A stretch of DNA of 64,000 nt from Saprospiraceae bacterium (GTDB lineage: Bacteria > Bacteroidota > Bacteroidia > Chitinophagales > Saprospiraceae): positions 1 through 64,000 of the forward strand of contig CATQHI010000005.1 of assembly GCA_958295895.1 (NCBI GenBank). The letters run 5' to 3'. A model generated the notes under the pieces. That model searched no databases. It was not told the DNA's origin and saw only the letters and a program-made list of their open reading frames with translations. This document shows, in pieces, positions 1,553-60,317 of this stretch. The position numbers were made by a program, and so were the translations under genes. Positions within the stretch are counted from its first letter, which is position 1. Each line of letters begins with the position of its first letter.

Positions 1553-1571
1553 GGCCGCGGCCGCAGGTGCA
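1553..1571 (+). repeat. Dispersed GGCGGGGMCGCAGGTGCA motif, copy 1
   Basis: Intergenic copy reading GGCCGCGGCCGCAGGTGCA, 62 bases before the YciI start. A degraded relative (GCGGGGCCG, then TGCAGGCA) lies at about 1514-1535. Confidence 0.7.
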
Positions 1572-1632
1572 GTGGTAAACCCGAAACACGTTGAGGCTGT
1601 ACCTTCAATGGCTCAACAACCTAAACCCCCCA

Positions 1633-1902
1633 ATGAACCACTACATCCTCTTCTACGAAACCGTAAACGGCTACGTAGAAAAACGGCAGCCCTACCGTGA
1701 TACCCACCTCACCCTGGCCCGCAAGGCCTCCGAGGCCGGTGAACTGGTCATGGCCGGTGCCTACGATCCGGCGGACGGCGCGGCGCTGGTCTTCAGGGGT
1801 GCATCGGAGGAGGTCGCCGAAGCCTTCGCCCGTGAGGACCCCTACGTGAAGAACGGGCTGGTGACGCGGTGGTGGGTGCGGAAGTGGAACGTGGTGGTGT
1901 AG
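1633..1902 (+). CDS. YciI family protein
   Basis: Small 89-residue protein of the YciI (YCII-domain, ferredoxin-like) family, usually a dimeric enzyme-like fold of unclear substrate. The domain is seen in MNHYILFYETV at the N-terminus, the central RDTHLTLARKASEAGELVMAGAY segment with the conserved His and Gly, and the C-terminal DPYVKNGLVTRWWVRKW block. I chose the ATG at 1633 rather than an ATG-less extension from 1591, because the extension has no homology and the family starts at the first beta strand. A TACCTTCA box at 1600-1607 fits a Bacteroidota -7 element and would give a short leader. The gene sits alone between two copies of the dispersed motif in inverted orientation. The function in this organism cannot be named. 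Confidence 0.85.
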   Translation: MNHYILFYETVNGYVEKRQPYRDTHLTLARKASEAGELVMAGAYDPADGAALVFRGASEEVAEAFAREDPYVKNGLVTRWWVRKWNVVV

Positions 1903-1903
1903 A

Positions 1904-1966
1904 CTGCCTTCGGCAGGTAGACGCCTTCGGCTGGTTAGACCGCTGCGCGGGTAGCCCCTCCGGGGG
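1904..1966. repeat. Array of four mini-hairpins with three-base loops
   Basis: Directly after the YciI stop codon there are four consecutive short palindromes: CTGCC-TTC-GGCAG (1904-1916), GCC-TTC-GGC (1923-1931), CCGC-TGC-GCGG (1940-1950) and CCCC-TCC-GGGG (1955-1965). They are separated by GTAGAC/TTAGAC/GTAG spacers. The repeated architecture and similar spacers argue against chance. The array resembles those at 21600-21738 and 40296-40336. The lack of a T-run makes simple intrinsic termination unlikely. Confidence 0.6.
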
Positions 1967-2001
1967 TAGAAGGGCGGCCGAGTTTGTTGGCTGTGACGTT
2001 C

Positions 2002-2020
2002 TTTGCACCTGCGGCCCCGC
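2002..2020 (-). repeat. Dispersed GGCGGGGMCGCAGGTGCA motif, copy 2
   Basis: Intergenic copy on the minus strand (plus strand TTTGCACCTGCGGCCCCGC), 36 bases upstream of hisA. Its flank (ATTCAACAACCC...) is the complement of the GTTGTTGAATTG flank of the region near copy 1. Confidence 0.75.
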
Positions 2021-2056
2021 AACAATTCAACAACCCAGTAACTCACCACCTGACCC

Positions 2057-2770
2057 TTGCACATCATCCCGGCCATAGACCTCATCGACGGAAAGTGCGT
2101 ACGCCTCACCCAGGGTGACTACGACCGTAAGACTGTGTACAACGAAGACCCCCTGGCGGTGGCACGGGAGTTCGAGGCGGCGGGGCTGGAGCGGCTGCAC
2201 GTGGTGGACCTGGACGGGGCGCGGGGCGGCGGTATTGTGAATCACCGGGTACTGGAACGGATCGCGGGGGGGACGAAGCTGAAGATTGACTGGGGTGGGG
2301 GAATGAAGAGTGACGAGGACCTGCGCATAGCCTTCGAGGCTGGCGCGCACCAGGTGACGGGCGGGACGATCGCGGTGAAGCAGCCGGAGGTATTTCTGGG
2401 CTGGCTGGAGCGGTACGGACCGGAGCGGATCATCCTGGGCACGGATGTGCGGGAAGATAAGATCGCGGTGAGTGGCTGGGAGGAGGCCAGCGACCGGGAG
2501 CTGTTTGAGTTTCTGGCGGAGTACGTGGAGCGGGGGGTGCGGTATACGATCTGTACCGACGTGAGTAAAGACGGGCTGCTACAGGGTACGGCGCGGGAGC
2601 TTTACGCCCGGATACGGCGGGAGCAGCCGGAGGTGAAGCTGATCGCTAGCGGGGGGGTGGCGACGACGGACGACCTGGATGCCCTGGCGGCGCTGGACTG
2701 CTATGGGGTGATCGTGGGTAAGGCGATTTATGAGGGGCGGATTGGGTTGGAGGAGTTAGTACAATACTAA
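2057..2770 (+). CDS. hisA: 1-(5-phosphoribosyl)-5-[(5-phosphoribosylamino)methylideneamino]imidazole-4-carboxamide isomerase (ProFAR isomerase)
   Basis: Catalyses the fourth step of histidine biosynthesis, an Amadori rearrangement of ProFAR to PRFAR, in the cytoplasm. The 237-residue protein matches the family's usual length and TIM-barrel layout: IIPAIDLIDGKCVRL with catalytic Asp8, VVDLDGARGG, the phosphate-binding WGGGM and IASGG segments, and the second catalytic Asp in LGTDVRED. The start codon is TTG (TTG CAC ATC ATC CCG), fixed because the family begins exactly at this strand and no ATG is available. The gene stands alone rather than in a his operon, so the other his genes must lie elsewhere. 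A weak inverted repeat (CTACAAT-AATC-ATTGTAG, 2837-2854) lies downstream without a clear T-run. HisF is excluded by the IDLIDGKCVRL N-terminus. Confidence 0.95.
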   Translation: MHIIPAIDLIDGKCVRLTQGDYDRKTVYNEDPLAVAREFEAAGLERLHVVDLDGARGGGIVNHRVLERIAGGTKLKIDWGGGMKSDEDLRIAFEAGAHQVTGGTIAVKQPEVFLGWLERYGPERIILGTDVREDKIAVSGWEEASDRELFEFLAEYVERGVRYTICTDVSKDGLLQGTARELYARIRREQPEVKLIASGGVATTDDLDALAALDCYGVIVGKAIYEGRIGLEELVQY

Positions 2771-2941
2771 GCGCTGGCAATATGGTGTTCAACCCTGCGT
2801 TGACACTTCGATGCTGTTGGGCTCAGTTTCTTACCGCTACAATAATCATTGTAGGGTAGGGATAGGGTGAGTTGTTGGGTCAAGTTTTACGTGTGTTTAC
2901 GTAGCGCGGCAGCGATCAGAACTTTCGAAAATGTATTGACC

Positions 2942-8046: not shown

Positions 8047-11000
8047 ATGAAAGCACTTTTACCCCTCGTCTTACTCATTTGCTGTTTACCCCTCGCCGGC
8101 CAGGAGGGCGGCTCGCCCGCCCTGCAGTTCCTCCGCGACCGCGTCGAGCGGCTCGACCTGGTCGACTCCGACCTCTGGGAGCTGCGCCTCACCGATCAGT
8201 ACGCCTCCCCCGACGGTACCGAGCACGTCTACGTAGGTCAGTCACTCTACGGCACCCCCATTTACAACGCCCAGGCCGCCGTGCACTACCGCGGGGGGCG
8301 GGCCGTTTACCACACCTCCAGCCTGGAGCACGACATCCGCCGGCGCGGGCAGGCCACCGTGCCCCGGTTGACCGGCGACCAGGCTTTTTTGCGCCTGGGT
8401 TTGCCGGCTAGCACCCGCATGCTCACAGCCGATATGGTCTATTATCCCCTGCCCGGCCCCGGGGCTACGTTGGAGCTCGCCTGGCAAGTGGTGACCGAGG
8501 ACGCCGAGCAGCACACCACCCTCCACCTGGTCGACGCAGCCACCGGCGCGGAACTTTACCAAACTAGCCTCACCCTCAGCTGCTCCTTCGACGAGGCACC
8601 GGGCGCGGCCGCGGGTGCAAAGCAGATGGAAGTGACCCCGAGCGTAGCGGCAGGCCTGCGCGGTGACGGGGCCCTCTACAACGTTTTCCCCTTCGGCCTA
8701 GAGTCTCCCAATGACGGCCCCCGCCAGCTACTGTTAGAGCCCGCCGATACCCTCGCCTCGCCCTACGGCTGGCACGATACCAACGGCAAGCCCGGGCCGG
8801 AGTACACCACCACTCGAGGCAATAACATCTGGGCCTACCGCGATGCCGATACCACCCGGAACGAGCCCGACCCCGGCTTCGAGGCCGATGGCGGCGCGGA
8901 ACTGGACTTCGATTTCTTTTTCGACACGATGCAACGGCCGGCCGATATCGTCGAGGCCTCTCTGACCCAGCTGTTCTACACGAATAATATGCTGCACGAC
9001 TGGCTCTACCACCACGGCTTCGACGAGGCCTCCGGCAACTACCAGCAGAACAATTACGGCCGCGGCGGGCGGGGCCGGGATCCCGTACGGGCCGAAACCC
9101 ACGATTCCTCGGGAACCAATAATGCCAACTTCAGCACCCGGGGCGATGGAAGCTCCGGCCGCATGCAGATGTACCTCTGGGGCACCAGCAGTCTACTCAC
9201 CGTTCTTGCTCCCGACGACCTAGCCGGCAATCGCCGCACGGGCAGCGCCGAGTTCGGTGCGCGGATCGGGGAGGAGCCGCTGACCGCCCAGCTAGCCATC
9301 GGCCGCGATAGCACTCAGTCGCCTAACCTGGGCTGCGCCGAGCTCATCAACCCCGAGGAGGTACGCGGTAAGATCGCCCTGATCGACCGCGGCGACTGCA
9401 CCTTTCAACAAAAGGCCTTCAACGCCGAGCAGGCCGGTGCGGTCGGCGTCATCATCTGCAACCCTGCCAACGATATACTCACGATGGCCGCCGTAAACGA
9501 CCGCGACGATATGCCCGTGACCGTCCCCGCCGTGCTGCTGCGGGAGCGCGACTGTACCCCCCTCAAGCAGGTCATCACCGCGGGTGGAACGGTGGAGGTA
9601 GCTTTTCAGGATAACAACCTGACCCCCACCGATGGCTCCTTCGACAACGGCGTGGTGGCCCACGAATACGCCCACGGATTGAGCATTCGCCTGGTCGGTG
9701 GCCCCTCGGAGTACACCTGCCTACAGAACGACGAGCAGATGGGGGAGGGTTGGAGTGATTTCTTCCTGCTGGCCTCGACGCCGCAGTCCGCCACCCCTAG
9801 CCCCAATGGCACCGAAAAGCGGGGCATCGGGGTATACTCCACCTCCGGAGAGCCCGGGGCTCGGGGCTTCCGCTCGCAGTTCTACTCCACGGACTTCGCC
9901 ATCAACAACCATACCTACGACGATGTCATCACCGATGCCATCCCCCACGGGGTGGGGGAGACCTGGGCGGCCGTGCTCTGGGACCTATACTGGCGGATGG
10001 TGCAGACTTACGGCTTCGACGACGACCTGATCACCGGTACGGGGGGCAACAACGCCGCCGTCCGCCTGGTCGTCGAGGGGTTAAAATACACCCCCTGTAG
10101 CCCCGGCCTCGTCGACGGCCGTGACGCTCTACTGGTCGCCGATCGGGCACTCAGTGGCGGGGCCAATGCCTGTATGATCTGGGAGGTATTCACCCGCCGT
10201 GGCCTCGGGGTATCGGCCGAACAGGGCTCGGGTGACCTGCGCAGCGACAACCGCGAGGCCTTCGATCTTCTCCCCGACTGTATCCCCACAGTCAAGTTGC
10301 TGAAGCAAGCCGATACCACCTTCATCAGTCCCGGCGACGAGATCACCTACACCCTGATCGTACGCAACGATAAGCCTACGGCCGTTACCGGCCTCACGGT
10401 AACCGACGTGCTGCCCGCTGGCGTCCAGTTAATTGCTGGTAGTCTCAATAAGGGCAATGCCGAGGTCAGCCCGACCCCGAATGCAATCACCGTCACCCTG
10501 CCACAACTAGCTGCCGGTGCGCGCGACACGGTAAGCTACACGGTGACCACAGCCCCCGACAAAACCAGCAGTCGCCTGCTGTACAGCAATGCCGATACCA
10601 CCGATGGCTTCCTCTGGGACGTGGTCTCCGGTACCGGCACCGCCACCTGGATACGCTCCGACTCTACGCCCTTCGCCGGACGGCACGCCTGGTTCGTGCC
10701 CAATACAGCATCGGCTCAGGATCAAATCCTACAGCTGCGCGATCCGCTTACCATCAGCGGTCCGCGTCCCGCCCTGCGCTTTTTCACTAAGTACCGTACG
10801 GAGGCCGCCTTCGACGCCGGTGTCGTGGAGGTGAGCACCAACGGGATGGACTGGGAGAACGTAGACGATAAGTTCCTACGCTTTGGCTACCGCGGGCTCA
10901 TCAGCGGCAGAGCAGCCCGGCCCCTGCGGGATACTCCAACCTTCTGGGGCAATAGCGAGGGCTACCGGGAGGCAATCGTCGACCTGGCCGCCTATCGGGG

Positions 11001-13983: not shown

Positions 13984-14701
13984 AAGTAGCCTGCGTCAGA
14001 AGAAGGTCCGGCAAAATTACCACAAGTTCGTAGCCGAGGGACCGCGCATCGTCGCCGAACTCCTCCAGCAAGACCGCTACCCCGTCGATCACCTCTATGC
14101 ACTCCCCGCCTGGCTACAACAGGCCGCGGCGCCGATAGGTGTACCCACAACGGCCGTCACCCCCAAAGAATTGGGGCGCATCAGTCAGCTAGCTACCCCC
14201 CATCAGGTGCTGGCCGTCGTCGATACCCCACCAGTACCCCCGGCCATACCCCCCACCGTAGCCACCAACTGGTCACTGTACCTCGACGGCATCCAGTCGC
14301 CCAGCAACCTCGGGGCCCTACTGCGCATCGCCGACTGGTTCGACTTTCCCTTCGTCTTCGGCGGCCCAGGCACGGCCGATCTGTATAACCCCAAAAGCAT
14401 CCAGGCCAGCATGGGCTCCTTCCTGCGCATTCAGTACCGGGAGGCGGAGCTCACCACCCTCACCGACGCATTCCCGGACCTGCCCGTCTTTGGTGCCGAT
14501 CTGGACGGCGAAGACATCTACCACGTCACGCCACCCCCCGCCGGCATCCTCGTCCTCGGTGCGGAGGGGCCAGGCATCCGGGCGGGGACGCAGGTGCAGA
14601 TCAATCGCCGGGTGACGATCCCACGGGCCGCCGGCCGCACCACGGAGAGCCTGAATGCGGCGGTGGCGGCGGGGATTTTGTGTAGTGCGTTGCGGCGATA
14701 A
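13952..14701 (+). CDS. TrmH/SpoU-family RNA 2'-O-methyltransferase
   Basis: A 249-residue SPOUT methyltransferase that transfers a methyl group from SAM to a ribose 2'-OH in rRNA or tRNA. The substrate-binding N-terminal part is FISSLRQKKVRQNYHKFVAEG; motif 1 is SPSNLGALLRIADWF, motif 2 is LGAEGPGIR, and motif 3 is TTESLNAAVAAGILCSALRR, forming the trefoil-knot SAM site. I chose the ATG at 13952 because the family starts a few residues before KFISSL; the upstream extension has no homology and is antisense to tamL. Its 5' end overlaps tamL head-to-head (ATGCCCAT holds both an outgoing and a possible incoming ATG). Its TAA abuts the sugar-transferase stop. Copy 4 of the dispersed motif lies right after motif 2 (AGTQVQ). 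Which nucleotide it modifies is unknown. Confidence 0.88.
   Translation: MPIPSGTIKFISSLRQKKVRQNYHKFVAEGPRIVAELLQQDRYPVDHLYALPAWLQQAAAPIGVPTTAVTPKELGRISQLATPHQVLAVVDTPPVPPAIPPTVATNWSLYLDGIQSPSNLGALLRIADWFDFPFVFGGPGTADLYNPKSIQASMGSFLRIQYREAELTTLTDAFPDLPVFGADLDGEDIYHVTPPPAGILVLGAEGPGIRAGTQVQINRRVTIPRAAGRTTESLNAAVAAGILCSALRR
14011..14021 (-). promoter_or_regulatory. Possible tamL -7 box (TAATTTTG) inside the divergent methyltransferase gene
   Basis: The minus strand reads GGTAATTTTGC, 28 bases upstream of the tamL ATG at 13983. It lies within codons of the methyltransferase, as expected when divergent genes overlap. Confidence 0.4.
14580..14598 (+). repeat. Dispersed GGCGGGGMCGCAGGTGCA motif, copy 4
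   Basis: Inside the SPOUT methyltransferase gene, reading GGGCGGGGACGCAGGTGCA in the frame Arg-Ala-Gly-Thr-Gln-Val-Gln, right after SAM-binding motif 2. Confidence 0.7.
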
Positions 14702-16165
14702 TCACTTCCCCTTGCCCTGCACCAATACTACTAGCGTATAGAACAAGATTTTAAAGTCCAGCCCCAGCGAGCGGTTCTCGATGTAGAGGATGTCGAACTT
14801 AAGGCGCTGCACCATCTCCTCGACGTTGCTGGCGTAGCCGTACTTCACCTGCCCCCAGCTGGTGATGCCCGGGCGTACGCGCAGCAGGTGGCGGTAGTGG
14901 GGTGCGCGGGCGCTGATCAGGTCGATGTAGTACTGCCGTTCGGGGCGGGGACCGACGAGCGACATCTCCCCAATCACGACATTCCAGAACTGCGGGAGCT
15001 CGTCGAGGCGCCACTTGCGCATCGTGGCCCCCCAGGGCGTGCAGCGCACGTCCTCGTCGCGGCTGAGCTGCGGCCCGCCCGCCTCGGCATCCGGGTACAT
15101 GGAGCGGAACTTAATGATGCGAAAGGGACGGCCATTGAGCCCGATCCGCTCCTGAGTGTAAAGGATTGGGCCCCGGGAGGAGAGTCGTACCCGGAGGGCT
15201 ACGTAGAGCAGGAGGGGCAACAGTAGGATCAGCAGGAAGACCGCGGTGGTCAGGTCTAGTATCCGCTTTACGATCCGTTGCCAGCGGGGCATCATGTTCT
15301 GGCGGATCTCGATGAGCACCGCACCGAAAACGTGGTTCATCTTCACCGTGCCGAGCATGATGTCGTACATGTCGGGGATGATCTTGACCAGTATCTGCCC
15401 TTCGTAATCGCTCAGTACGCCCAGCAGCTCCCGCAGTCGGCTGTGCTGGCTGGTATCAATGGCGATGATCACCTCCTCGACGTTGCGCACCTCGATCAGG
15501 TCGGAAAGCTCTCCCAGGCTGCCCAGGCGGGGCAGGTGGTGCTGCAGGGCCGGCTGGCTCTTGGTGCGGCTGTCCACGAAGCCGATGAAGCGGTTACCCA
15601 GCCCCTTGGGTCGGCCACTGATGTCCTGGTAGAGATGGACGGCCCGCTCACCGCCGCCCACGATGAGGGTGTTGAAGGCTACCTCGCCGGCCTTGAGGCG
15701 CTGACTGGCCCGGGTGAGCAGGAGCATCCGTAGTCCGGCAGTGAACAGGAAGTGCAACGCGAAGAGTGTAAACAGGCTCCGGGCGTACATCGAGTAGTCC
15801 ACCACGGCATCGTCTAGCAGCACCGTGAAGAAGAGCACCAGCGTCCCCGCCCCGGACAGTACCAGCGTGTGTACCAGCGTAGTGAGGCGGCTCAGGCGGT
15901 AGATGTCGCGGTACTGATCGAAGAGTACGTAGGCCAGCGACCAGCAGAGGGGGATAAAGAAGCTGCCCCAGCCGTAGTTCTGGTCGCTGAGCATATCGGC
16001 CGGTCCTTCCAGGGAGCCCTCCGCCCGCCCCCGTAGGTAGAAAAAGACCGTCCAGGCGAGCCAGGCGGTCAGCAGATCGCCCACCACGTACACCCACCGA
16101 TCCCGCCGCCGGCGGGCGGCCGTATCCGGCTGGAGGCCGGTGGGCGGGGGAAGCGGATGCGTCAT
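14702..16165 (-). CDS. Exopolysaccharide polyprenyl glycosylphosphotransferase (bacterial sugar transferase)
   Basis: A 487-residue inner-membrane enzyme that moves a sugar-1-phosphate from a nucleotide sugar to undecaprenyl phosphate, the first step of exopolysaccharide or O-unit synthesis. The N-terminal 150 residues contain four hydrophobic segments. A CoA-binding/Rossmann-like domain (about 155-280, NTLIVGGGERAVHLYQ) follows, then a fifth membrane segment and the catalytic PF02397 domain (from about 300). That domain shows KRILDLTTAVFLL, GPILYTQERIGLNGRPF, IKFRSM, KWRLDELPQFWNV and the signature MSLVGPRPE. The next gene upstream on this strand is a Gfo/Idh-type oxidoreductase 32 bases away, which may be sugar-related. 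No other polysaccharide genes are adjacent. The specific sugar is unknown. Confidence 0.9.
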   Translation of the reverse strand: MTHPLPPPTGLQPDTAARRRRDRWVYVVGDLLTAWLAWTVFFYLRGRAEGSLEGPADMLSDQNYGWGSFFIPLCWSLAYVLFDQYRDIYRLSRLTTLVHTLVLSGAGTLVLFFTVLLDDAVVDYSMYARSLFTLFALHFLFTAGLRMLLLTRASQRLKAGEVAFNTLIVGGGERAVHLYQDISGRPKGLGNRFIGFVDSRTKSQPALQHHLPRLGSLGELSDLIEVRNVEEVIIAIDTSQHSRLRELLGVLSDYEGQILVKIIPDMYDIMLGTVKMNHVFGAVLIEIRQNMMPRWQRIVKRILDLTTAVFLLILLLPLLLYVALRVRLSSRGPILYTQERIGLNGRPFRIIKFRSMYPDAEAGGPQLSRDEDVRCTPWGATMRKWRLDELPQFWNVVIGEMSLVGPRPERQYYIDLISARAPHYRHLLRVRPGITSWGQVKYGYASNVEEMVQRLKFDILYIENRSLGLDFKILFYTLVVLVQGKGK

Positions 16166-21524: not shown

Positions 21525-21599
21525 CGGCGAGTAGGGGGTGAGGTAGGTAGTTCATAACGGTAGTGAGTGCGTGGAGGTTGGGTGGGAGGGCAGTACGAT

Positions 21600-23540: not shown

Positions 23541-24536
23541 CTATCGCCCAATCAGCGCGTGTTTGCACCCGCGGCCCCGCCCTTTTGCCAGCCAGTTGTC
23601 CTGCCCGGCTGCCAGCAACTCTGCCATAGCCCTGGTAATAGGTTGACCAGTTACCTGCTCGATGAATAGCCACTGTCCGGCAGGATTGATTTCCAGAAAA
23701 AGGTATTCACCATCCGGAGTAAGGCGCATATCGATGGCCCCGTAGCTCAATCCCAACTCACGCATAAGGGCAAGCAGTTGGTGTTCGATTTCGGAGGGTA
23801 GCTCGGTGGCTGCGATCGTGCAGTTGCCGAGGTCCATGCGAAAGTCTTGAGGATAGCTGCTTTTCCGAAGATCGATCGCGGCGGCAAATAATTGCCCCCC
23901 AACCGCCGTGATACGCAGGTCCGCAACAGCCTCAATGTATTCCTGAAAGATGACAGGGGCGTACTTTACCTTCTCGAGTAGCGAGAGCTCCCTGCGTTTG
24001 AGGATGCGAGTCTCACGCCAGGCCACCTCGGCGCCCTTAAAGGGTTTATAAACGGTGCGCTTGCAACCGAGCGTTTCGGCGAAGGCCCGGGCCCGGGCGG
24101 GGTCGTTCGTAATGAGAGTGCGTGGCGTACGGAGGCCTAGCTTCTGGGCTACCGTTAACTGGTAGGCTTTGCGACCGGCGCGCTGATCGAGCAGCGGATC
24201 GTTGACCCAGAAAGCGTCGAGCAACTGGTACATCCCCTCAAAAGCCTCGCCGATCTCTCCGTAGGCGAAATTGCGTACGTCGGTAGTGGTAAGCTCGGAG
24301 TGTAGGCAAAAGGGCTGCGGCCGCCGCCACCAGGCGGTGGCAACCTGTGTGAGGTCGATAAGCCGGTCACCTGCGCTAAGGATCCTCTCAGCATCCGGAT
24401 CGTAGTCTAGAATGAGGCGGGAAGCAGTCGGAAAGCTGGCCGTATCGTATAGGGTATAGGGGGCGGACAGCGCGTCCAGCTCGGCGGTCACCCGCCGAGC
24501 GTGGACGTCCTGCTCGTTGGAGAAGACGAGAATCAT
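23541..24536 (-). CDS. MvdD-like ATP-grasp ligase (RiPP maturase type)
   Basis: A 331-residue ATP-grasp protein most like the MvdC/MvdD ligases that install ester or amide crosslinks in graspetide (microviridin-type) peptides. The N-terminal domain has the WWRRP signature (69-73). A family-like segment NDPLLDQRAGRKAYQLTVAQ (from 112) is followed by LGLRTPRTLITN, the ATP-binding Lys164 in VYKPF, QEYIEAVADLRIT, and metal-binding acids in GAIDMRL and FLEINPAGQW (near 280-289). It starts three bases after the S8 protease stop, so the two form one operon. No separate precursor peptide gene was recognised. The last about 16 residues (Lys/Arg/Gly-rich) are encoded by copy 5 of the dispersed motif and look like an added tail. 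The substrate is unknown; ATP-grasp family membership is strong, the RiPP role is inference. Confidence 0.75.
   Translation of the reverse strand: MILVFSNEQDVHARRVTAELDALSAPYTLYDTASFPTASRLILDYDPDAERILSAGDRLIDLTQVATAWWRRPQPFCLHSELTTTDVRNFAYGEIGEAFEGMYQLLDAFWVNDPLLDQRAGRKAYQLTVAQKLGLRTPRTLITNDPARARAFAETLGCKRTVYKPFKGAEVAWRETRILKRRELSLLEKVKYAPVIFQEYIEAVADLRITAVGGQLFAAAIDLRKSSYPQDFRMDLGNCTIAATELPSEIEHQLLALMRELGLSYGAIDMRLTPDGEYLFLEINPAGQWLFIEQVTGQPITRAMAELLAAGQDNWLAKGRGRGCKHALIGR
23562..23581 (-). repeat. Dispersed GGCGGGGMCGCAGGTGCA motif, copy 5 (GCGGGTGCAAA variant)
   Basis: Encodes the extreme C-terminus of the ATP-grasp ligase in the frame Lys-Gly-Arg-Gly-Arg-Gly-Cys-Lys. The plus strand reads TTTGCACCCGCGGCCCCGCC. 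Confidence 0.65.
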
Positions 24537-26498: not shown

Positions 26499-28376
26499 GT
26501 GCGCCACGCCCTACCTCTGCTGCTTCTCCTAAGTGTTTGCACCTGCGTCCGCGCCCAGGAGAGTGACGCCTACCTGGAGCTAGCCGAAATTGCCCACATC
26601 GAGCAAAAGATCATGGTACCCATGCGCGACGGCAAGCGGCTGGCCACCGACGTCTACCGGCCAAAAAACGTAGATAAGGCCCCCATCATCTTCAGCCGCA
26701 CGCCCTACCAGTTCAACGGCTACGTGGACGGGGAGGAGCAGACCCGGACCTACGAGACGGCCCTGGAGATGGTCGAGCGCGGCTTCGCCTACGTGGTGCA
26801 GAACGAGCGCGGCCGCTACTTTTCGGAAGGGGAGTGGGACATCCTCGGCGTGCCGCTGACCGACGGCTACGACGCCATCGAATGGATGAGCAGCCAGCCC
26901 TGGAGCAACGGCAACGTAGGCCTGCTGGGCTGTAGCTCGACGGCCGAGTGGCAAATGGCCGTGGCGAGTATGGGCCACCCCGCCCTGAAGGCCGCCGTAC
27001 CCATGGGCTACGGAGCCGGCGTGGGACGGGTGGGGGACTTTATGGAACAGGGCAACTGGTACCGCGGCGGCGCCCAGCAGATGCTCTTCACCAGTTGGCT
27101 CTACCAGGTGCAGCACGATCCGCTGGCGCCGAAACTGCAGGAGGGACTGAGCCAGGCCGACCTCCAGCGGCTCTCCCGTTTTTACGACATGGCACCGGAG
27201 TACCCGGAGATCTCCTCCACGGAGTTACTGGCCACCCTGCCCGTGCGCGACATCATCAAAGCCAAGCAAGGCCCGACCGGCGTCTACGAGGAGATGATCA
27301 TGCGTAAACCCAACGATCCGGCCTGGTACGAGGGCGGCCTGTACCACGACGATATGCCCTACGACGTGCCGACCTTCTGGTTCACGAGCTGGTACGACGT
27401 GTCGATCAGCCCCAACCTGGCGCTCTTCGACCATGTGCGGGAAAACGCGACCAGCCAGGAGGCCCGCGACAACCAGTTTCTCTGGATTGCCCCCACCCTC
27501 CACTGCGCCTACACCCGCGCTACCCAGAACACCATCGTCGGCGAACGCAGCGTGGGCGATGCCCGCTACGATTACGACGCCCTCATTTACGGCTTCTTCG
27601 ACAAGTGGCTTAGGGGCGACTCCCCCGAGATAATCGATACCCTAGCCCGCGTTACCTACTACACCATGGGCAGCAACGCGTGGCAGACCACCACGGCCTG
27701 GCCGCCACCGGACGTAGAAATGACGGACTTTTACCTCAGCAGTCAGGGCAATGCCAATACCATGTACGGGGCGGGGACGCTGGTGCGTAGTGCTTCGGGC
27801 GAGGAACGAGTCAGCCGTCCGGATACGATCGTCTACGACCCCATGAACCCCGTGAAGAGCTATGGCGGCAACGTCTGCTGTACCGGCGATGCGGTCCGGG
27901 GCGGCAGCTTCGACCAGCGGGTGATGGAGGCGCGCAACGATATTCTGGTCTACACCACCGAACCCTTTGCGGAGGATACGGAGGTAAGCGGCTTCGTGGA
28001 GTCGACTCTCTACCTCAGCAGTGACGCCAAGGACACCGACCTGACCGTTAAGCTTATCGACGTCGACGCCGACGGGGCGGCCTACAACCTCGACGAGACC
28101 ATCCAGCGCGTGCGCTACCGGGAGGGCTACGATAAGGAAGTATTCATGGAGCCGGGCGAGGTATACGAGGTAAAGATGACGCCGATGAGCACCAGCAATG
28201 TGTTCAAGGCCGGCCACCGGCTGCGCGTGGAGGTGAGCAGCTCCAACTTCCCCCGCTTCGACCGCAACCTGAATACGGGTGGGGATAACGTGACGGAAAC
28301 CGAGGGCGTGGTGGCGCGCAACGTGATTCACCACTCGGCGGAGTATCCTAGTGTGGTGCGGGTGCCGATACGGTAG
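26499..28376 (+). CDS. CocE/NonD family X-Pro dipeptidyl-peptidase-like hydrolase
   Basis: A 625-residue secreted serine hydrolase of the CocE/NonD (S15-related) family, which includes cocaine esterase, glutaryl-7-ACA acylase and X-Pro dipeptidyl peptidases. The N-terminal block [20 protein letters not shown] is followed by [15 protein letters not shown]. The nucleophile is in [14 protein letters not shown] (in place of GxSYxG), and a C-terminal jelly-roll domain (from about 430) ends [10 protein letters not shown]. The start is GTG (GTG CGC CAC GCC), required for the signal peptide [20 protein letters not shown]. Copy 6 of the dispersed motif encodes the end of that signal peptide (VCTCVRAQ). 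The last 29 bases overlap the broken Uma2 gene on the other strand. The natural substrate is unknown. Confidence 0.87.
26536..26556 (-). repeat. Dispersed GGCGGGGMCGCAGGTGCA motif, copy 6
   Basis: Lies in the signal-peptide codons of the CocE hydrolase; the plus strand reads TTTGCACCTGCGTCCGCGCC. Confidence 0.7.
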
Positions 28377-31353: not shown

Positions 31354-32949
31354 ATGAAAAACTTCGCCGAACTCTTCCGCCGCCTAGACCGCACCACCAA
31401 GATCAACGCCAAGGTAGCCGCCCTGGCCGACTACTTCCTTCAGGTAGACGACGAGGACAAGCTCTGGACCGTCGCCCTCCTTTCGCACCGGCGACCCCGC
31501 CGTACCGTCAACTCTAAACTGCTGCGCGCCTGGGCCTCGGAACTGAGCGAGGTAGCGACCTGGATCCTGGAAGAAAGCTACCACGTCGTGGGTGACCTGG
31601 CCGAGACCATCGCTCTGGTCCTACCCCCACCCGAGACCGACTACGACTACACCCTCACCTACTGGATCGACTACATCGAGCAGTTTGCCGGCTACGATGA
31701 GCTGGGTAAGAAGGAGGCCGTACAGGAAGCCTGGCGCGGGCTAGGTACTACGGAGCGTTATCTATTCAACAAGCTCATCACGGGCAACTTCCGCGTAGGC
31801 GTAAGCCAGAAGCTCATGACCCGCGCCCTGGCCCGCGCCACCGGCATCGAGGAGACCAACCTAGCCCACCGCCTCATGGGCAACTGGACGCCCAACGACA
31901 CCACCTTCGAGGAGCTGATCCACTCGGAGTCGGCCACTGACGACATCTCCCGCCCCTATCCCTTCTACCTCGCCTACCAACTCGAGCAGCCCGCCGAGGA
32001 GCTAGGCGACCCCCACGAGTGGCAGGCCGAGCACAAGTGGGACGGCATCCGCGGTCAGGTGATCGTGCGCAATGATGAGGTTTTTGTCTGGTCGCGGGGC
32101 GAAGAACTGGTCAACGATAAGTACCCGGAGTACGACATCCTGGCTAAGGCCATCCCTAACGGCACGGTGATCGACGGTGAGATTCTGCCCTACAAAGACG
32201 GCAAGCCCCTCGGCTTCAACGTCCTGCAGACCCGCATCGGCCGCAAGACCGTCAGCAAGAAGCTCCTCAAGGAGGCCCCCGTCGTGCTCATGTGCTACGA
32301 CCTACTGGAGTATGAAGGCCGCGACATCCGCAAGCTGCCCCTTTCCGGCCGCCGGGAGTTATTGGAGCGGCTGGTGAAGGAGTACGATACCCAGGGCATC
32401 CTCCAGCTTTCCCCGGTGTTCCACTTCGCGCACTGGGATGAGCTGGCCATCGAGCGCGAGACCGCCCGCGAGAAGTACTCCGAGGGCATCATGCTCAAGC
32501 GCCGCGACTCCGAGTACAAGCAGGGCCGCAAGAAGGGCGACTGGTGGAAGTGGAAGGTCGACCCCCTGACCATCGACGCGGTCATGATGTACGCCCAGCG
32601 CGGCCACGGCCGGCGCGCCAACCTTTACACCGACTTCACCTTCGGGGTCTGGGACGGCGATACGCTGGTACCCTTCACCAAGGCCTACTCGGGCCTCACC
32701 GACCAGGAGTTCAACAAGATCACCGCCTGGGTGCGGCGCAATACGGTGGAGAAGTTCGGTCCGGTGCGCTCGGTGAAGCCGAAGCAGGTCTTCGAGATCG
32801 GCTTCGAGGGCATTCGGAAGAGTACGCGGCATAAGTCGGGTGTGGCCCTTCGCTTTCCACGGATGCTGCGCTGGCGGCACGATAAGCCGGTGGAGGAGGC
32901 GAATACGAAGGCGGACCTGGAGGGGATGCTGGAGGTGTATGGGAGTTGA
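31354..32949 (+). CDS. ATP-dependent DNA ligase (bacterial exonuclease-linked type)
   Basis: A 531-residue ATP-dependent ligase that seals nicks or ends, distinct from the NAD-dependent replicative LigA. An N-terminal DNA-binding domain (1-200) precedes the nucleotidyltransferase domain with the adenylated Lys in EHKWDGIRGQ (motif I). This is followed by VFVWSRGEELV, VIDGEILPY (motif III/IIIa), SEGIMLKRRDSEYKQGRKKGDWWKWKVDP (motifs IV-V), and an OB-fold with the C-terminal RFPRMLRWRHDKP. ATG 31354 is 13 bases after the exonuclease stop. The length and motif spellings match the ligase subtype paired with MBL exonucleases. Likely roles are repair and desiccation or double-strand-break tolerance, by inference from related systems. 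Confidence 0.92.
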   Translation: MKNFAELFRRLDRTTKINAKVAALADYFLQVDDEDKLWTVALLSHRRPRRTVNSKLLRAWASELSEVATWILEESYHVVGDLAETIALVLPPPETDYDYTLTYWIDYIEQFAGYDELGKKEAVQEAWRGLGTTERYLFNKLITGNFRVGVSQKLMTRALARATGIEETNLAHRLMGNWTPNDTTFEELIHSESATDDISRPYPFYLAYQLEQPAEELGDPHEWQAEHKWDGIRGQVIVRNDEVFVWSRGEELVNDKYPEYDILAKAIPNGTVIDGEILPYKDGKPLGFNVLQTRIGRKTVSKKLLKEAPVVLMCYDLLEYEGRDIRKLPLSGRRELLERLVKEYDTQGILQLSPVFHFAHWDELAIERETAREKYSEGIMLKRRDSEYKQGRKKGDWWKWKVDPLTIDAVMMYAQRGHGRRANLYTDFTFGVWDGDTLVPFTKAYSGLTDQEFNKITAWVRRNTVEKFGPVRSVKPKQVFEIGFEGIRKSTRHKSGVALRFPRMLRWRHDKPVEEANTKADLEGMLEVYGS

Positions 32950-32956: not shown

Positions 32957-32977
32957 GGGGCGTGGCCGCAGGTGTAA
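32957..32977 (+). repeat. Dispersed GGCGGGGMCGCAGGTGCA motif, copy 7
   Basis: Intergenic copy GGGCGTGGCCGCAGGTGTAAA, 8 bases after the ligase stop, at the left edge of the AT-rich patch. Confidence 0.65.
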
Positions 32978-42441: not shown

Positions 42442-42461
42442 GGGCGGGGCCGCAGGTGCAA
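42442..42461 (+). repeat. Dispersed GGCGGGGMCGCAGGTGCA motif, copy 9
   Basis: GGGCGGGGCCGCAGGTGCAA between rpiB and the next gene; its final A is the A of that gene's ATG (42461). Confidence 0.75.
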
Positions 42462-43800: not shown

Positions 43801-43910
43801 CTTGCCACTAGCTCCGCACCAGCGCCCCCGCCCCCCTATCCCGCCCGTGAACACTCAGCCCCATTTTACCTTACCGCTAGCGTACCTTACCACTAAAATC
43901 AGCACCCCAC

Positions 43911-48180: not shown

Positions 48181-49020
48181 TCAGAGCCAGTAAAGTCGAT
48201 CACCAAAAATAGCCTCCGCCCTAGCCTCATCCTGGGCAAGCCCCAGTAGCATGCCCCCGCCGCCCGCACCGCAGAGTTTGAGCCGGTAGGCCTGTCCGCC
48301 ATTCCATAGGTCGTGAAACTCTACCGGTACGAGGTAGGGAAAGTTGGGGAGCTGGTACACCGATATCTCGCTAAACGCCCCGTAAAGCGCATTCCGGTCA
48401 CCGTTCAGCAGGGCCGTAATGGCCCGCTCGTTCGGCTCCATCCACCCGCTGCGGATATCGGGCACTAGCCCCCCGTCGACCGCCTGGGTGAACCGCCAGA
48501 TAAGGTCGCTCGCACTACGCGTGACCCCGGTGTCGACCAGGAAAAAACCCCGCTGCCAGCCTTGCGCGAGTTGCACCGCACCTGCGTCCCCGCCCTGGAG
48601 AAGCAGGGGTTGTTGTAGATAGCACACTAGAGGGTCGGTGCCGGAGCTCTCCCCGTGGAAGTGTCGCTCCATCGTAGCCAGCGTACCACGCAAACTTCTC
48701 ATATTCAGCGACTTACCGGCTGTAGTGGCGTAGCGGTCGAATACGGCGGCACATACCGCTCCGCTACTGCCCAGTCCGTAGCCGGTAGGGATATTGCCAT
48801 CCAGGCGTGCACCCTGTTGCAGTTCGGTAGCGAGTCTATCATGATCCAGCAGGTGGGCGGGGACGCAGGTACGCAGGTAATGGCAAAGGCCGAGTAGGCG
48901 GGAGTCCGGTTTCTCCTGCGCCCACTGGATCGTGAACCTCGGGTAGGGCACCGCCAGCCCCCGGCTACCGCATAGGATAATGTGCTCGCCGAAGAGGAGA
49001 ATTTTGGCGGGGTAGGTCAC
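48181..49020 (-). CDS. GHMP-family kinase, mevalonate kinase-like
   Basis: A 279-residue small-molecule kinase. The N-terminal AKILLFGEHIILCGSRGLAVPY is a GHMP start like that of mevalonate kinase (KxILxGEH), GYGLGSSGAVCAAVFDRYA is the phosphate-binding loop, ESSGTDPLVCYLQQ resembles the mevalonate kinase segment, and LKLCGAGGGGMLLGL is the C-terminal glycine motif. I prefer GTG 49020, which overlaps the SDR stop as GTGA, to a TTG three bases upstream. Two dispersed-motif copies lie in it (GGDAGA and CVPA), both in variable loops. It is the last gene of an FMO-SDR-GHMP operon. Mevalonate kinase fits best; galactokinase or homoserine kinase fit less well. Confidence 0.75.
   Translation of the reverse strand: MTYPAKILLFGEHIILCGSRGLAVPYPRFTIQWAQEKPDSRLLGLCHYLRTCVPAHLLDHDRLATELQQGARLDGNIPTGYGLGSSGAVCAAVFDRYATTAGKSLNMRSLRGTLATMERHFHGESSGTDPLVCYLQQPLLLQGGDAGAVQLAQGWQRGFFLVDTGVTRSASDLIWRFTQAVDGGLVPDIRSGWMEPNERAITALLNGDRNALYGAFSEISVYQLPNFPYLVPVEFHDLWNGGQAYRLKLCGAGGGGMLLGLAQDEARAEAIFGDRLYWL
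48578..48595 (-). repeat. Dispersed GGCGGGGMCGCAGGTGCA motif, copy 11
   Basis: Plus strand GCACCTGCGTCCCCGCCC; in the GHMP kinase gene it encodes Gly-Gly-Asp-Ala-Gly-Ala. Confidence 0.7.
48855..48873 (+). repeat. Dispersed GGCGGGGMCGCAGGTGCA motif, copy 12
   Basis: GGGCGGGGACGCAGGTACG, opposite in orientation to copy 11 within the same GHMP kinase gene; it encodes Arg-Thr-Cys-Val-Pro-Ala. Confidence 0.65.
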
Positions 49021-52948: not shown

Positions 52949-54124
52949 ATGCTTAAGCAAAAGCTACTCTTCGCGGCTATCTCCCTACTCGCCCTGCTGT
53001 TCGTCACGACCAGCTTACAGGCGCAGTACGACGATATGTACTACGATCCGGACGAGTTCCGTAGCGTAGAGCCCGCACCCGATTACTATCAGGACGATTA
53101 CGCCGCGCGCGACGATGCGCCCCGCGACAATTCGTTCCGCTCTTCGTCGAGCTACGACGATGATTACTACGATTATGCCTACTCCAGCCGCATTCGCCGC
53201 TTCAATCGGCCCTACGCTGGCTTTGGCTACTACGATCCGGTCTACGTGGATGCAGCCTACTACGATCCGTTCTACCGGCCTTTCGGTACCACGTCGCTGA
53301 TTTACAACAGTGGCTTTGGCTACAACCGCTTCGGTCGTAGTGCCTTTCTGGAGCCCGTTATCACGCCCTACGGTATTGCCTATGTTGATCGTGGCTTCGG
53401 TGGTTGGAACCGGGGTTTTGGTTGGAACGACCCCTACTACGGTAATGCCTGGGGTGGCGGTGGCTTTGGCCGCGGCTACTACGGTGGAGGTGGCTTCGGC
53501 TACGGTGGCTTTGGCGGTGGCGGTTTTGTTACCCCCGGTGGTTACTACTGTCCCCCCGCCTGGGGTGGTGGCAACACCTACGTAGTGAACAACAACGTAA
53601 GCAATGCTCCCGCTCGCCGTACGGTGACCTCCGTGCCCCGTGCCGCTACTACCTCGATCGCCGACCGCGTAGTTCGCAACCGCGACAATACTACGGTGAG
53701 CCCCCGCTCGCTCGACAACCGCGGTACTACGACCCGCAGCAGCAGTGGACGCACGCTGCGCAGTGACGACCGTGCCCGCACTACCGTCAACCCGCGATCG
53801 AATACCCGGTCCGCCGTACCCAGCCGCACCTATACCCCTAGCCGCTCCGCCACGCCTAGCCGTAGCACCACGCCCCGGACCTACACCCCGAGCCGCAGTA
53901 CTACGCCGACCCGGAGCTACTCGCCGAGCCGTAGCACCGCACCCCGCAGCTATTCGCCCAGCCGGAGTGCTACTACCCCGAGCCGCAGCTACAGCCCGAG
54001 CCGTAGCGCGACCCCGAGCCGCTCCTATACTCCCAGCAGCAGCAGTACGCGTAGCTCTAGTCCCAGTCCGTCGCGTTCTACGACCAGTACCCGCTCCACC
54101 ACCCGGGGGGGCGGCGGCCGTTAA
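52949..54124 (+). CDS. Secreted low-complexity protein with Tyr/Asp/Gly-rich body and Arg/Ser-repeat tail
   Basis: A 391-residue exported protein I do not recognise. ATG 52949 starts a signal peptide (MLKQKLLFAAISLLALLFVTTSLQAQ). Residues 27-130 are Tyr/Asp-rich (YDDMYYDPDEF...). About 130-210 is Gly/Tyr/Phe-rich (GGGFGRGYYGGGG). Residues 225 to the end are an Arg/Ser/Thr/Pro tail in which the unit TPSRS/SPSRS recurs more than a dozen times, giving a strongly basic end. No catalytic motif or T9SS domain is visible. CGTTTAACG and CGTTTTAAC lie in its promoter region (52831-52871), shared with the transglycosylase at 17632. A strong terminator (54146-54183) follows. The build suggests a structural or matrix-type protein, or an extracellular nucleic-acid or polyanion binder, but that is speculation. 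Confidence 0.7.
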   Translation: MLKQKLLFAAISLLALLFVTTSLQAQYDDMYYDPDEFRSVEPAPDYYQDDYAARDDAPRDNSFRSSSSYDDDYYDYAYSSRIRRFNRPYAGFGYYDPVYVDAAYYDPFYRPFGTTSLIYNSGFGYNRFGRSAFLEPVITPYGIAYVDRGFGGWNRGFGWNDPYYGNAWGGGGFGRGYYGGGGFGYGGFGGGGFVTPGGYYCPPAWGGGNTYVVNNNVSNAPARRTVTSVPRAATTSIADRVVRNRDNTTVSPRSLDNRGTTTRSSSGRTLRSDDRARTTVNPRSNTRSAVPSRTYTPSRSATPSRSTTPRTYTPSRSTTPTRSYSPSRSTAPRSYSPSRSATTPSRSYSPSRSATPSRSYTPSSSSTRSSSPSPSRSTTSTRSTTRGGGGR

Positions 54125-59021: not shown

Positions 59022-59044
59022 GCTAGCTCACTGCGCGTGATCGG

Positions 59045-59085
59045 CGAGCGCCTCCGGACTTGTTCCGGGGGCGCTCGTTGTTTAT
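59045..59085 (+). terminator. Intrinsic terminator of the GH5 gene
   Basis: CGAGCGCCTCCGG (59045-59057) pairs with CCGGGGGCGCTCG (59065-59077), one T-G wobble, 7-base loop, followed by TTGTTTATT. Confidence 0.75.
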
Positions 59086-59190
59086 TAAACACAGTATGGT
59101 TAAAACGTGCTGAAAGAATTGTTAAGGTGAGTGGAAAAGGGCAAATCGCCCACAGATCAGTGTTAATTTGACCAGTATAATCTGATTCCC

Positions 59191-59727
59191 ATGTACCTAC
59201 GTCTACTCTATTTACTTCTCTCACTCATCGTAGCTGCCACAGCTGCCGGTCAGGAGTCTCGCTTCGATCTTCGTATCGGCAGCGGAATTTACCGAACCGG
59301 AGCATTGGACATGCGGGGATTGATGATAGAGAACGAGTTCAATTACACCCTTAATCGCAAACTAGCGCTGAGCGGTCAATTGGGCTTTGGCCGTAGCAAC
59401 ACCGGAGTGGGTACGACTTCCAGCTTTCTACAGGGCAACGGCACCCTTTTTTGGTCACCCTTCGGCAACGATGGCCGGCACGATTTCCGCCTCGGTGCCG
59501 GCGTAGGCTACGCTTCCATTACGGATGCCTACGTAGCCAGGGCCGAGTTTTTTAACAACCACTTAATCGACGAGGACCACGTCTTCCGTTACCGGCACAA
59601 GACGGGCGTAAACCTGGTGCTGGAGCACACGTATGTACTCACTCGGCGCCTACTCCTCGGCATCAAATTGTTCGGCCAGACCCACGCTAACGGTGGCCTG
59701 CTACTTAAACTCGGCGTGCGGCTATAG
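59191..59727 (+). CDS. Small outer-membrane beta-barrel protein of unknown function
   Basis: A 178-residue exported protein. The signal peptide is MYLRLLYLLLSLIVAATAAGQ. The rest is eight or so amphipathic strands with alternating hydrophobic residues (FDLRIGSGIYRTGALD, FNYTLNRKLALSGQLGFGRS, DFRLGAGVGYASIT, LLLGIKLFGQT) and ends LLLKLGVRL, consistent with an eight-stranded OmpW/OmpX-size barrel. I do not recognise a specific family. It stands alone between the GH5 terminator and the serine hydrolase, and GTTAAAACG (59099-59107) lies in its upstream region. A lipid or small hydrophobic ligand role is only a guess. Confidence 0.65.
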   Translation: MYLRLLYLLLSLIVAATAAGQESRFDLRIGSGIYRTGALDMRGLMIENEFNYTLNRKLALSGQLGFGRSNTGVGTTSSFLQGNGTLFWSPFGNDGRHDFRLGAGVGYASITDAYVARAEFFNNHLIDEDHVFRYRHKTGVNLVLEHTYVLTRRLLLGIKLFGQTHANGGLLLKLGVRL

Positions 59728-59773
59728 GAGCCTGCCAAATGGCGGATGACCCAAAACATTCGCTACTAGGATC

Positions 59774-59781
59774 TACTTTCG
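59774..59781 (+). promoter_or_regulatory. -7 box (TACTTTCG) of the serine hydrolase gene
   Basis: TAnnTTYG variant ending five bases before ATG 59786. Confidence 0.4.
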
Positions 59782-60125
59782 CCACATGACCTTCCGGCTT
59801 ATTCTGCTTCTTTGCCTCGTTTCTACTCTGACTGCTCAGTCCGGTAACCCCCTGGCCGACGTCATCGCCGAGCACCGCGCCGACTTCACCCCCTGGGTCG
59901 ACCAGCCCGATAGCTTCGAGGTGCAGGTGTTATACTCCCAGATTGACCGGCAGCCCGACGGTTCGGTCCGCCTGCACACCTACCGCTGGGGGGCGGACAG
60001 CACCCAGTATTTCTACCCCGCCAGCTCCGTCAAGATGCCGGTTGCCGCGCTGGCCCTACAGAAGCTCAATGAGCTCGGCGTAGTGGGGATGGGTCCGGAA
60101 ACGCCGATGTACACTGCCACGGGGG

Positions 60126-60146
60126 GCGCACCTGCGTCCGCGCCCC
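60126..60146 (-). repeat. Dispersed GGCGGGGMCGCAGGTGCA motif, copy 14
   Basis: Plus strand GCGCACCTGCGTCCGCGCCC; in the serine hydrolase it encodes Gly-Ala-Pro-Ala-Ser-Ala-Pro within an apparent insertion. Confidence 0.7.
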
Positions 60147-60299
60147 AAACTGCCGTAAGCCGTGACACAAGCAGTACGACGGGGCTACCTAGCATAGCCC
60201 ATTACATCCGTAAGATTTTCCTAACTAGTGATAATGACGCCTACAACCGCCTTTTCGAATGGCTGGGGCCTACCTACATCAATAAGGCGTTACGGGCTG

Positions 60300-60317
60300 C
60301 CGGGGTCGCAGGTGCAA
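60300..60317 (+). repeat. Dispersed GGCGGGGMCGCAGGTGCA motif, copy 15
   Basis: CCGGGGTCGCAGGTGCAA in the serine hydrolase gene, read as Gly-Val-Ala-Gly-Ala-Arg, opposite in orientation to copy 14. Confidence 0.6.

What the first reader, a model, noticed from the sequence alone, without database searches (positions are those of the whole stretch)
1553..60317. A ~20-base DNA motif dispersed about 15 times, in intergenic DNA and inside unrelated genes
Seen directly: the motif GGCGGGGMCGCAGGTGCA (then usually AAA) or a close variant occurs at 1553, 2002, 8601, 14580, 23562, 26536, 32957, 40231, 42442, 46792, 48578, 48855, 56422, 60126 and 60300, on both strands. The 9-mer core CGCAGGTGC alone is present at 11 of these sites, where well under one is expected by chance in 64 kb. 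Spacing is irregular. It is far shorter than known insertion sequences and is not a palindrome. It could be a short mobile repeat, a recognition site for a chromosome-organising or modification system, or a relic of a larger element.
Basis: seen in the sequence. Interest (0 to 1): 0.78.

Follow-up and report, generated by a model that had tools for sequence, protein, structure and literature searches.

The report
Uptake-sequence-like DNA motif in Neolewinella
A 20-base DNA word is written hundreds of times, mostly by point mutation, across the genomes of one genus of marine bacteria and also occurs in some phages, with species-specific spellings and an unusual strand-by-strand spacing rule, as if it marked DNA as 'self' for uptake or recombination.

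Summary
Consensus GGGCGGGGNCGCNGGTGCA(AA); an 18-mer form occurs 871 times (up to 2 mismatches) in 4.77 Mb, against 7 for the reversed pattern. It does not look mobile: aligned sites show no motif-sized insertion relative to a congener and are better conserved than their flanks. Outside the genus no genome of 378 from the order has more than 3 matches. Two congeners that lack it carry other words (445 and 761 copies). A 73-kb accessory island is nearly free of it, while some phages, at least one temperate, carry several copies. Unexpected: two copies on the same strand rarely lie within 3 kb (16 pairs, 108 expected), while opposite-strand copies are near expectation or closer. Best reading (0.55): a self-DNA mark that works like the DNA uptake sequences of Neisseriaceae and Pasteurellaceae, but read strand by strand and without detectable type IV pilus motor ATPases. 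That defining feature was not met, so I do not file it as a member. Main rival: a very long Chi-like recombination signal. No function was tested.

The parts
1553..1571 (+). motif, 2 mismatches, intergenic
2004..2022 (-). motif, 2 mismatches, intergenic
8601..8619 (+). motif, 1 mismatch, in M36 metallopeptidase gene
14580..14598 (+). motif, exact, in SpoU rRNA methylase gene; identical in G009
15834..15852 (-). motif, 1 mismatch, in sugar transferase gene; lost in G009 (6 mismatches)
23564..23582 (-). motif, exact, last codons of an ATP-grasp gene
26538..26556 (-). motif, 1 mismatch, near the start of ORF 26499-28376 (antisense to it); conserved in G009 with diverged flanks
27769..27787 (+). 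motif, 1 mismatch, coding; conserved in G009
31484..31502 (-). motif, 2 mismatches, antisense in ATP-dependent DNA ligase gene
32958..32976 (+). motif, 2 mismatches, just after the ligase stop codon
40232..40250 (+). motif, 1 mismatch, intergenic; conserved in G009 with diverged flanks
42442..42460 (+). motif, exact, intergenic; degraded in G009 (5 mismatches)
43815..43833 (-). motif, 1 mismatch, intergenic; conserved in G009
48577..48595 (-). motif, 1 mismatch, in GHMP-kinase gene; partly conserved also in N. aquimaris and N. marina
48855..48873 (+). motif, 2 mismatches, opposite-strand partner 278 bp from 48577; the pair exists in G009 too
60127..60145 (-). motif, 2 mismatches, in a gene of the PF13354 enzyme family
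60298..60316 (+). motif, 2 mismatches, opposite-strand partner 171 bp from 60127; the pair exists in G009 too

Best explanation
The motif is a genome-wide self-DNA recognition sequence of the Neolewinella lineage that works like a DNA uptake sequence. SHOWN: it is a non-palindromic word of about 20 bases with weaker conserved flanks in some species. It changes by point mutation in genes and spacers, is kept against drift, and is spelt differently in different species. It is nearly absent from one foreign island, present in some phages, and spaced by a rule that acts within each DNA strand. INFERRED: a DNA-processing machine recognises the word on one strand, probably as that strand is captured or fed through ComEC in a natural-transformation pathway without type IV pilus motors. 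DNA carrying the word is imported or recombined more often, so the word accumulates. One copy per roughly 3 kb of a given strand is enough, so further same-strand copies gain nothing, while a copy on the other strand serves the other strand. A change in the recogniser changes the dialect.
For: Abundance: 871 against 7. Mismatch spectrum in 683 kb, 0 to 5 mismatches: 39, 47, 35, 35, 127, 586, against reversed-sequence control 0, 0, 1, 17, 106, 677: a peak near the exact word on top of background. Place (G000 and G009 stretches, three of the seven; the other four gave 14 matches in all): 71 of 196 matches intergenic where 9 to 12% of the DNA is, and 10 of the 125 coding matches in frame 1. Of sites that aligned between G000 and G009, 17 of 19 and 13 of 16 have no gap inside the motif, and none has a motif-sized block. 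Identity inside the motif 210/238 against 695/945 in flanks, P 6e-7; GC-rich control words 5380/6782. Dialects: G001 445 copies of GGCGGAGCGCAGGTAR, the other 20 genus members 0 to 25; G011 761 copies of GGCTAACAAAGTAGCAA, the others 0 to 2; G007 54 copies of its own spelling in 240 kb, control 0. A 72.8-kb stretch without refined-pattern sites, P 0.001, has no match over about 700 bp in 20 congeners in the 16 kb tested. No strand polarity seen along contigs. ComEC in 21 of 21 genomes. A yardstick phage of a competent host, HP1, also carries its host's uptake word, 17 against 3 in the control.
Against: No uptake or transformation data exist here, and no recognising protein was found. The family that holds the type IV pilus motor ATPases (PF00437) gives hits in 20 of 21 genomes, over the cut-off in 11, but only just (25.5 bits at best) and over less than a quarter of the profile; I read these as unrelated ATPases. 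The same-strand rule is not a reported property of uptake sequences as far as I saw, and HP1 is too small to decide: 4 same and 1 opposite pair under 1 kb, 6 and 10 under 3 kb. The rule is not significant in G001 (2 same, 4 opposite) and weaker in G007 (7 same, 19 opposite adjacent pairs). Strand independence is only approximate: divergent pairs at 0.5 to 3 kb are 28 against 43.5 expected, convergent 42 against 43.5. Plain molecular drive does not by itself predict the rule. Phage carriage would suit an intracellular function equally well. The island is not wholly free: a looser pattern finds 2 matches in it against 65 in the other 327 kb.
Confidence: 0.55

Rival explanations
1. An unusually long Chi-like signal: a helicase-nuclease travelling from a DNA end recognises the word on one strand and switches to recombination. 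Each strand then needs its own sites every few kb.
For: Same-strand spacing with near-independent strands is what two independent travel directions would need. The core GCNGGTG fits the first 7 bases of E. coli Chi GCTGGTGG at its six fixed positions (Chi sequence seen in a reference title). Some phages carry it. Overall density is about one per 5.5 kb, in the range I recall for E. coli Chi.
Against: The variable base is T, as in Chi, in only about 5% of copies. About 20 to 28 positions and 24 to 32 bits, flank columns included, whereas known Chi are 5 to 8 bases (recalled). Species of one genus use unrelated words, GGCTAACAAAGTAGCAA in G011. No replication-strand bias seen. RecBCD/AddAB genes were not searched for.
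Confidence: 0.2
2. A binding site of a chromosome-organising protein, kept for nucleoid structure.
For: Many sites, conserved against flanks, spaced out per strand.
Against: A 73-kb stretch has almost none; the word is rewritten between species of one genus; some phages carry it in one of the dialects; no polarity seen.
Confidence: 0.1
3. Dispersed strand-specific nick sites of a conjugation-like export system.
For: Strand-specific action over a few kb would give the same-strand spacing.
Against: Relaxase and type IV secretion genes were not searched for; nothing else points to them.
Confidence: 0.05
4. A short mobile repeat (REP, MITE, fragment of an insertion sequence).
For: Hundreds of dispersed copies. 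Sites that did not align (5 of 24 in G000, 3 of 19 in G009) could hide insertions.
Against: No palindrome, almost no shared flank in G000, no motif-sized gap at aligned sites, graded mismatches, frame-dependent occurrence in genes, same-strand exclusion.
Confidence: 0.03
5. Chance or ordinary conserved codons of GC-rich DNA.
For: Some window sites lie in conserved coding context, for example 48577, partly conserved also in N. aquimaris and N. marina.
Against: Control counts of 7 against 871 and at most 3 per genome in 378 genomes of the order outside the genus.
Confidence: 0.02

Closest known systems
DNA uptake sequence (DUS) of Neisseriaceae
   Same: Hundreds of non-palindromic copies in both orientations, in genes and spacers, with species dialects (PMC3630211, passages seen; PMC12616744, passages seen). 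DUS distribution has been used to find foreign elements (PMC7371117, title and start of abstract only).
   Different: Here the word is about 20 to 28 bases rather than about 9 to 13; the host is a Bacteroidota genus without a convincing pilus motor ATPase; close opposite-strand pairs are mostly too far apart for a terminator hairpin (57 to 388 bp, though the G002 listing shows a few at 35 to 42 bp); and same-strand copies tend to exclude each other within 3 kb.
Uptake signal sequence (USS) of Pasteurellaceae
   Same: A core plus weaker flanking segments; even spacing reported by Karlin et al. as cited in PMC1939737, which itself finds them less even than compaction would need (passages); copies in the temperate phage HP1.
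   Different: Different lineage and sequence; whether USS obey a same-strand rule could not be tested on a chromosome, and HP1 is too small to decide (4 same, 1 opposite under 1 kb; 6 and 10 under 3 kb).
Chi recombination sites (RecBCD/AddAB)
   Same: Asymmetric word, strand-specific action, similar density (recalled), core fitting E. coli Chi at six positions.
   Different: Much longer, species dialects within a genus, no replication-strand bias seen.
HIP1 of cyanobacteria
   Same: Highly iterated short word written throughout genomes (PMC4390886, title and start of abstract only).
   Different: HIP1 is an 8-base palindrome linked to methyltransferases; this is a long non-palindrome.

Membership tests
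DUS/USS uptake sequences | One asymmetric word over-represented by orders of magnitude, both strands | tested here: met
   871 vs 7; strands 467/404
DUS/USS uptake sequences | Located in genes and enriched between genes, accumulated by point mutation | tested here: met
DUS/USS uptake sequences | Dialects among related species | tested here: met
DUS/USS uptake sequences | Depleted in recently acquired DNA | tested here: met
   one island only: 0 refined-pattern sites in 72.8 kb, 2 with a looser pattern
DUS/USS uptake sequences | Type IV pilus motor ATPase (PilB/PilT) in the host | tested here: not met
   PF00437 hits in 20 of 21 genomes, over the cut-off in 11, at best 25.5 bits and over less than a quarter of the 370 positions, in frames of 301 to 1,074 aa; no full-length motor ATPase. 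Minor pilins and other pilus genes not searched
DUS/USS uptake sequences | Motif raises DNA uptake or transformation | not testable with these tools
   needs an experiment
DUS/USS uptake sequences | ComEC channel present | tested here: met
   21 of 21 genomes; weak evidence, since 10 of 14 control genomes have it too
Chi sites | Short (5 to 8 base, recalled) word | tested here: not met
   about 20 to 28 positions with information
Chi sites | Orientation bias with replication | tested here: not met
   none seen against GC skew in 40-kb blocks, 683 kb of G000 and 229 kb of G009; no formal test, origin not located
Chi sites | Attenuates a RecBCD/AddAB nuclease | not testable with these tools
   needs biochemistry; the enzymes were not searched for
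REP / MITE / insertion sequence | Insertion of a block, inverted ends or target duplication | tested here: not met
   no motif-sized gap at 19 + 16 aligned sites; almost no flank conservation in G000
KOPS / matS / parS chromosome sites | Replichore polarity, or a palindrome clustered near terminus or origin | tested here: inconclusive
   no polarity in the stretches examined and no palindrome, but origin and terminus were not located

The most novel reading that the evidence does not exclude
A third, independent lineage of self-DNA marks, outside Neisseriaceae and Pasteurellaceae, which is read on single strands: each strand carries its own set of marks with a minimum same-strand spacing of about 3 kb. 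This would imply that the machine recognises single-stranded DNA (for example during ComEC-only entry, or by a strand-tracking enzyme), that its specificity drifts into species dialects, and that some phages mimic it.
Probability: 0.35. Interest if true: 0.93.

Novelty: new variant of a known kind. Interest (0 to 1): 0.84.

Why it matters
[quoted passage not shown] A parallel system in Bacteroidota, with dialects in one genus, would show that such marks evolve repeatedly and need not depend on type IV pili. The same-strand spacing rule is a new quantitative clue to how such a mark is read, and it can be tested directly by varying strand and spacing of the marks. The dialects offer a natural screen for the recogniser: a gene whose sequence tracks the spelling across the genus. 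Riemerella, another Bacteroidota, is already known to transform with an unusual gene set (PMC8459023, abstract and two sections read).

Tried and rejected
Strand polarity seen at first in tool listings was rejected: the listings are cut off unevenly, and fetched sequence shows balanced strands. Terminators: close opposite-strand pairs are mostly 57 to 388 bp apart, and intergenic sites show no consistent excess between convergent genes (3 seen, 5.3 expected; 1 and 6.1; 3 and 2.4). Direct-repeat deletion as cause of the same-strand gap: depletion is near complete to about 1.5 kb and ends between 3 and 4 kb, whereas deletion between 20-base repeats should fall steeply with distance (inference). 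G-quadruplex or hairpin: the G011 dialect has no G-runs; folding was not run. Rfam and tRNA scans of the window found nothing. De novo words in two other genera of the family, G021 and G023 (100 and 84 kb): none stood out as in this genus. Dialect swap at orthologous sites of G001 or G011 and other genomes: no site lay in an alignment, so untested. A chromosome-scale control of the strand rule in a Haemophilus-type genome could not be reached. Left out of the pair counts: G004 and G020 (60 kb each, few sites); G007 was counted apart, adjacent pairs only. A looser mismatch cut-off gave the same trend, 239 opposite and 114 same adjacent pairs (before the G011 C1 stretch was fetched). Distance bins and mismatch cut-offs were chosen after a first look. 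Genes were called with a simple hexamer model of my own, so intergenic shares are approximate.
Full report
WHAT WAS CLAIMED AND WHETHER IT HOLDS. The exact 9-mer core occurs 12 times (1.05 expected) and the 18-mer with up to 3 mismatches 19 times (0.39 expected). In the whole genome (G000, 4.77 Mb, window = contig C5:1-64000) the 18-mer with up to 2 mismatches occurs 467 + 404 times against 4 + 3 for the reversed pattern. A profile trained on the window plus 400 kb gives GGGCGGGG-N-CGC(A/G)GGTGCAA(A) with little information further out. With the refined pattern, 17 sites lie in the window.

WHICH ORGANISM. The glucose-6-phosphate dehydrogenase of the window is 85, 81 and 81% identical to those of Neolewinella aquimaris, N. 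marina and Lewinella sp. IMCC34191, and 55% or less to the other 77 loci kept. Neolewinella belongs to Saprospiria, Bacteroidota.

HOW WIDE. In 21 genomes of the genus the word is abundant in most, nearly absent in G001 (7) and G011 (6), and rare in G007 (54). Of 396 genomes drawn from the order 68 have at least one match; 18 of the 396 are of the genus, and none of the other 378 has more than 3. With a shorter pattern N. aquimaris has 680 and N. marina 517 matches (controls 97 and 83); Lewinella sp. IMCC34191 27 (22) and Hymenobacter sp. BT188 33 (23) are near background.

DIALECTS. Over-represented words in the genomes that lack the motif showed that they have words of their own. G001: GGCGGAGCGCAGGTAR, 445 copies with up to 1 mismatch, against 0 to 25 in the other 20 genomes of the genus, the 25 being in G007. 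G011: GGCTAACAAAGTAGCAA, 761 copies with up to 2 mismatches, against 0 to 2 in the others. G007: ttttGGGCGnCGGAGCGCaGGAg, 54 copies in 240 kb, reversed control 0. In G005 and G014 the word extends to about GGGCGCGGcCGCAGGTGCAAGgGaAGGT. Several profiles share a T-rich upstream flank and a GGC start; whether they derive from one ancestor is inference.

IT CHANGES BY POINT MUTATION AND DOES NOT LOOK INSERTED. The window is collinear with G009 C2 at about 80% identity. Of 24 G000 sites examined 19 aligned, 17 without a gap inside the motif; of 19 G009 sites 16 aligned, 13 without; the gaps in the others are 1 to 12 bases, never a motif-sized block. Sites 40232 and 43815 between genes and 26538 near an ORF start keep the word while their flanks have diverged; others are intact in one genome and degraded in the other (15834, 42442). 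Over the 14 of 18 sites that aligned, identity is 210/238 inside the motif and 695/945 in flanks (P 6e-7), against 5380/6782 for GC-rich control words; the sites were chosen in G000 only, and ten are coding, where the protein may add conservation. The mismatch spectrum has a peak at 0 to 2 mismatches over a background that starts at 3. In G000 and G009 stretches, 10 of 125 coding matches are in frame 1, and 71 of 196 matches are intergenic, about three times their share of DNA.

THE STRAND RULE. This was not expected. I took 15 stretches, 1.88 Mb and 353 sites, from six genomes (hits with up to 2 mismatches, 3 for G011). Adjacent motifs lie on opposite strands 230 times and on the same strand 108 times (P 3e-11). 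All pairs by distance: same-strand from 0 to 3 kb 16 seen, 108 expected; 3 to 4 kb 24 seen, 35 expected; beyond that about as expected. Opposite-strand below 500 bp 34 seen, about 18 expected; 0.5 to 3 kb 70 seen, 87 expected (convergent 42 of 43.5, divergent 28 of 43.5), so independence of the strands is approximate. Shuffling strand labels at fixed positions never gave so few same-strand pairs: under 2 kb, 7 seen, mean 44.5, lowest of 400 shuffles 31. By genome, same/opposite under 3 kb: G000 6/38, G005 0/15, G009 2/11, G011 5/28, G014 1/8, G001 2/4; G007, adjacent pairs, 7/19. G000 and G009 share some orthologous pairs and are not independent. So each strand carries its own set of marks with a usual minimum spacing near 3 kb. 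No polarity along contigs was seen.

FOREIGN DNA AND PHAGES. The largest gap between refined-pattern sites, 72.8 kb on C3 (229,973-302,795), is longer than expected (simulated P 0.001); a looser pattern finds 2 matches in it and 65 in the other 327 kb. Of 16 kb of it, 3 of the other 20 genomes have no match and 17 only short ones (up to about 700 bp, 64 to 91%), some of them to its multi-copy insertion sequence; the region also has a type I methylase (HsdM) gene. Twelve kb of the window matched all 21 genomes. In the IMG/VR virus collection, exact patterns hit 22 and 76 stretches. Of 78 distinct stretches, 19 hold at least 2 separate sites, several of them related or pieces of one contig; all were found by the motif, so their density is not a fair sample. 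Three stretches of one 38.7-kb contig hold 7 sites with up to 1 mismatch, a tail tape-measure gene, an integrase and a Cro/CI-like regulator: a temperate phage. A second contig, L245, has portal, large terminase and head-protease hits and four sites in 10.9 kb; 43 of 52 records matching its terminase are phages named for Bacteroidota genera, the best Polaribacter phage Leef_1 at 27% identity. That their hosts are Neolewinella is inference from the spelling. As a yardstick, Haemophilus phage HP1 holds 17 exact uptake words (reversed control 3), so phage carriage is compatible with an uptake sequence; HP1 is too small to decide on the strand rule (4 same and 1 opposite pair under 1 kb, 6 and 10 under 3 kb).

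MECHANISM. A long asymmetric word that accumulates by point mutation in genes, differs by species and is scarce in foreign DNA is known to me only from DNA uptake sequences, where biased uptake followed by recombination drives it up. PMC1939737 (passages) and PMC3630211 (passages) describe such features. The genus has ComEC in 21 of 21 genomes. The pilus-motor family PF00437 gives only partial hits near the cut-off, which I read as unrelated ATPases. That fits Riemerella anatipestifer, which transforms with ComEC, DprA, ComF, RecA and four proteins of unknown function (PMC8459023). DprA, ComF, minor pilins, the Riemerella genes and RecBCD/AddAB were not searched for here. The strand rule suggests that recognition happens on single strands. 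A Chi-like role would also explain it, and the core fits E. coli Chi at six positions, but the word's length and the dialects speak against it.

LITERATURE. No held paper combines Lewinella with 'uptake sequence'. DNA uptake sequence + Bacteroidetes + natural competence returned two papers, neither by title or abstract start about such a system. A search with Neolewinella as one of four terms listed 10 of 2,059 papers, none of the ten with the name; one for Chi sites in Bacteroidetes listed three, none by title about them. PMC12616744 states that only Neisseriaceae and Pasteurellaceae are known to discriminate in this way. Most subscription papers and bioRxiv are not held.

LIMITS.

Noticed in passing
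window genome C5:181860-185700 (outside the window): A CRISPR array of 48 repeats (GTTTCAATCCATCTATCGCT..., unit about 73 bp); cas genes not looked for.
   Followed up: partly
window 40256-40345 and 21591-21615: A separate dispersed element with inverted arms (CAGTACGATGCTGCCTCCGGCAGCG): more than ten further copies at 86-98% identity in G000 and others in G007, G009, G012 and G020; REP- or terminator-like.
   Followed up: no
L009:12763-14160 (G000 C3): An insertion sequence (DDE transposase gene) with six further copies at 100% and one at 88% in G000.
   Followed up: no
window 1489-1531 and 2004-2046: Low-complexity inverted repeat (GTGAGTTGTTGAATTG...) 472 bp apart, the right arm containing a motif copy.
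   Followed up: no
G007 C1:720001-960000: A dispersed AT-rich word around GAATTAGTGAATGG / TGAGGGACTGAA, clustered in places and unrelated to the motif.
   Followed up: no
window 53830-54043: A run of about 18/33-base imperfect tandem units (families D1 and D2), possibly coding a low-complexity stretch.
   Followed up: no
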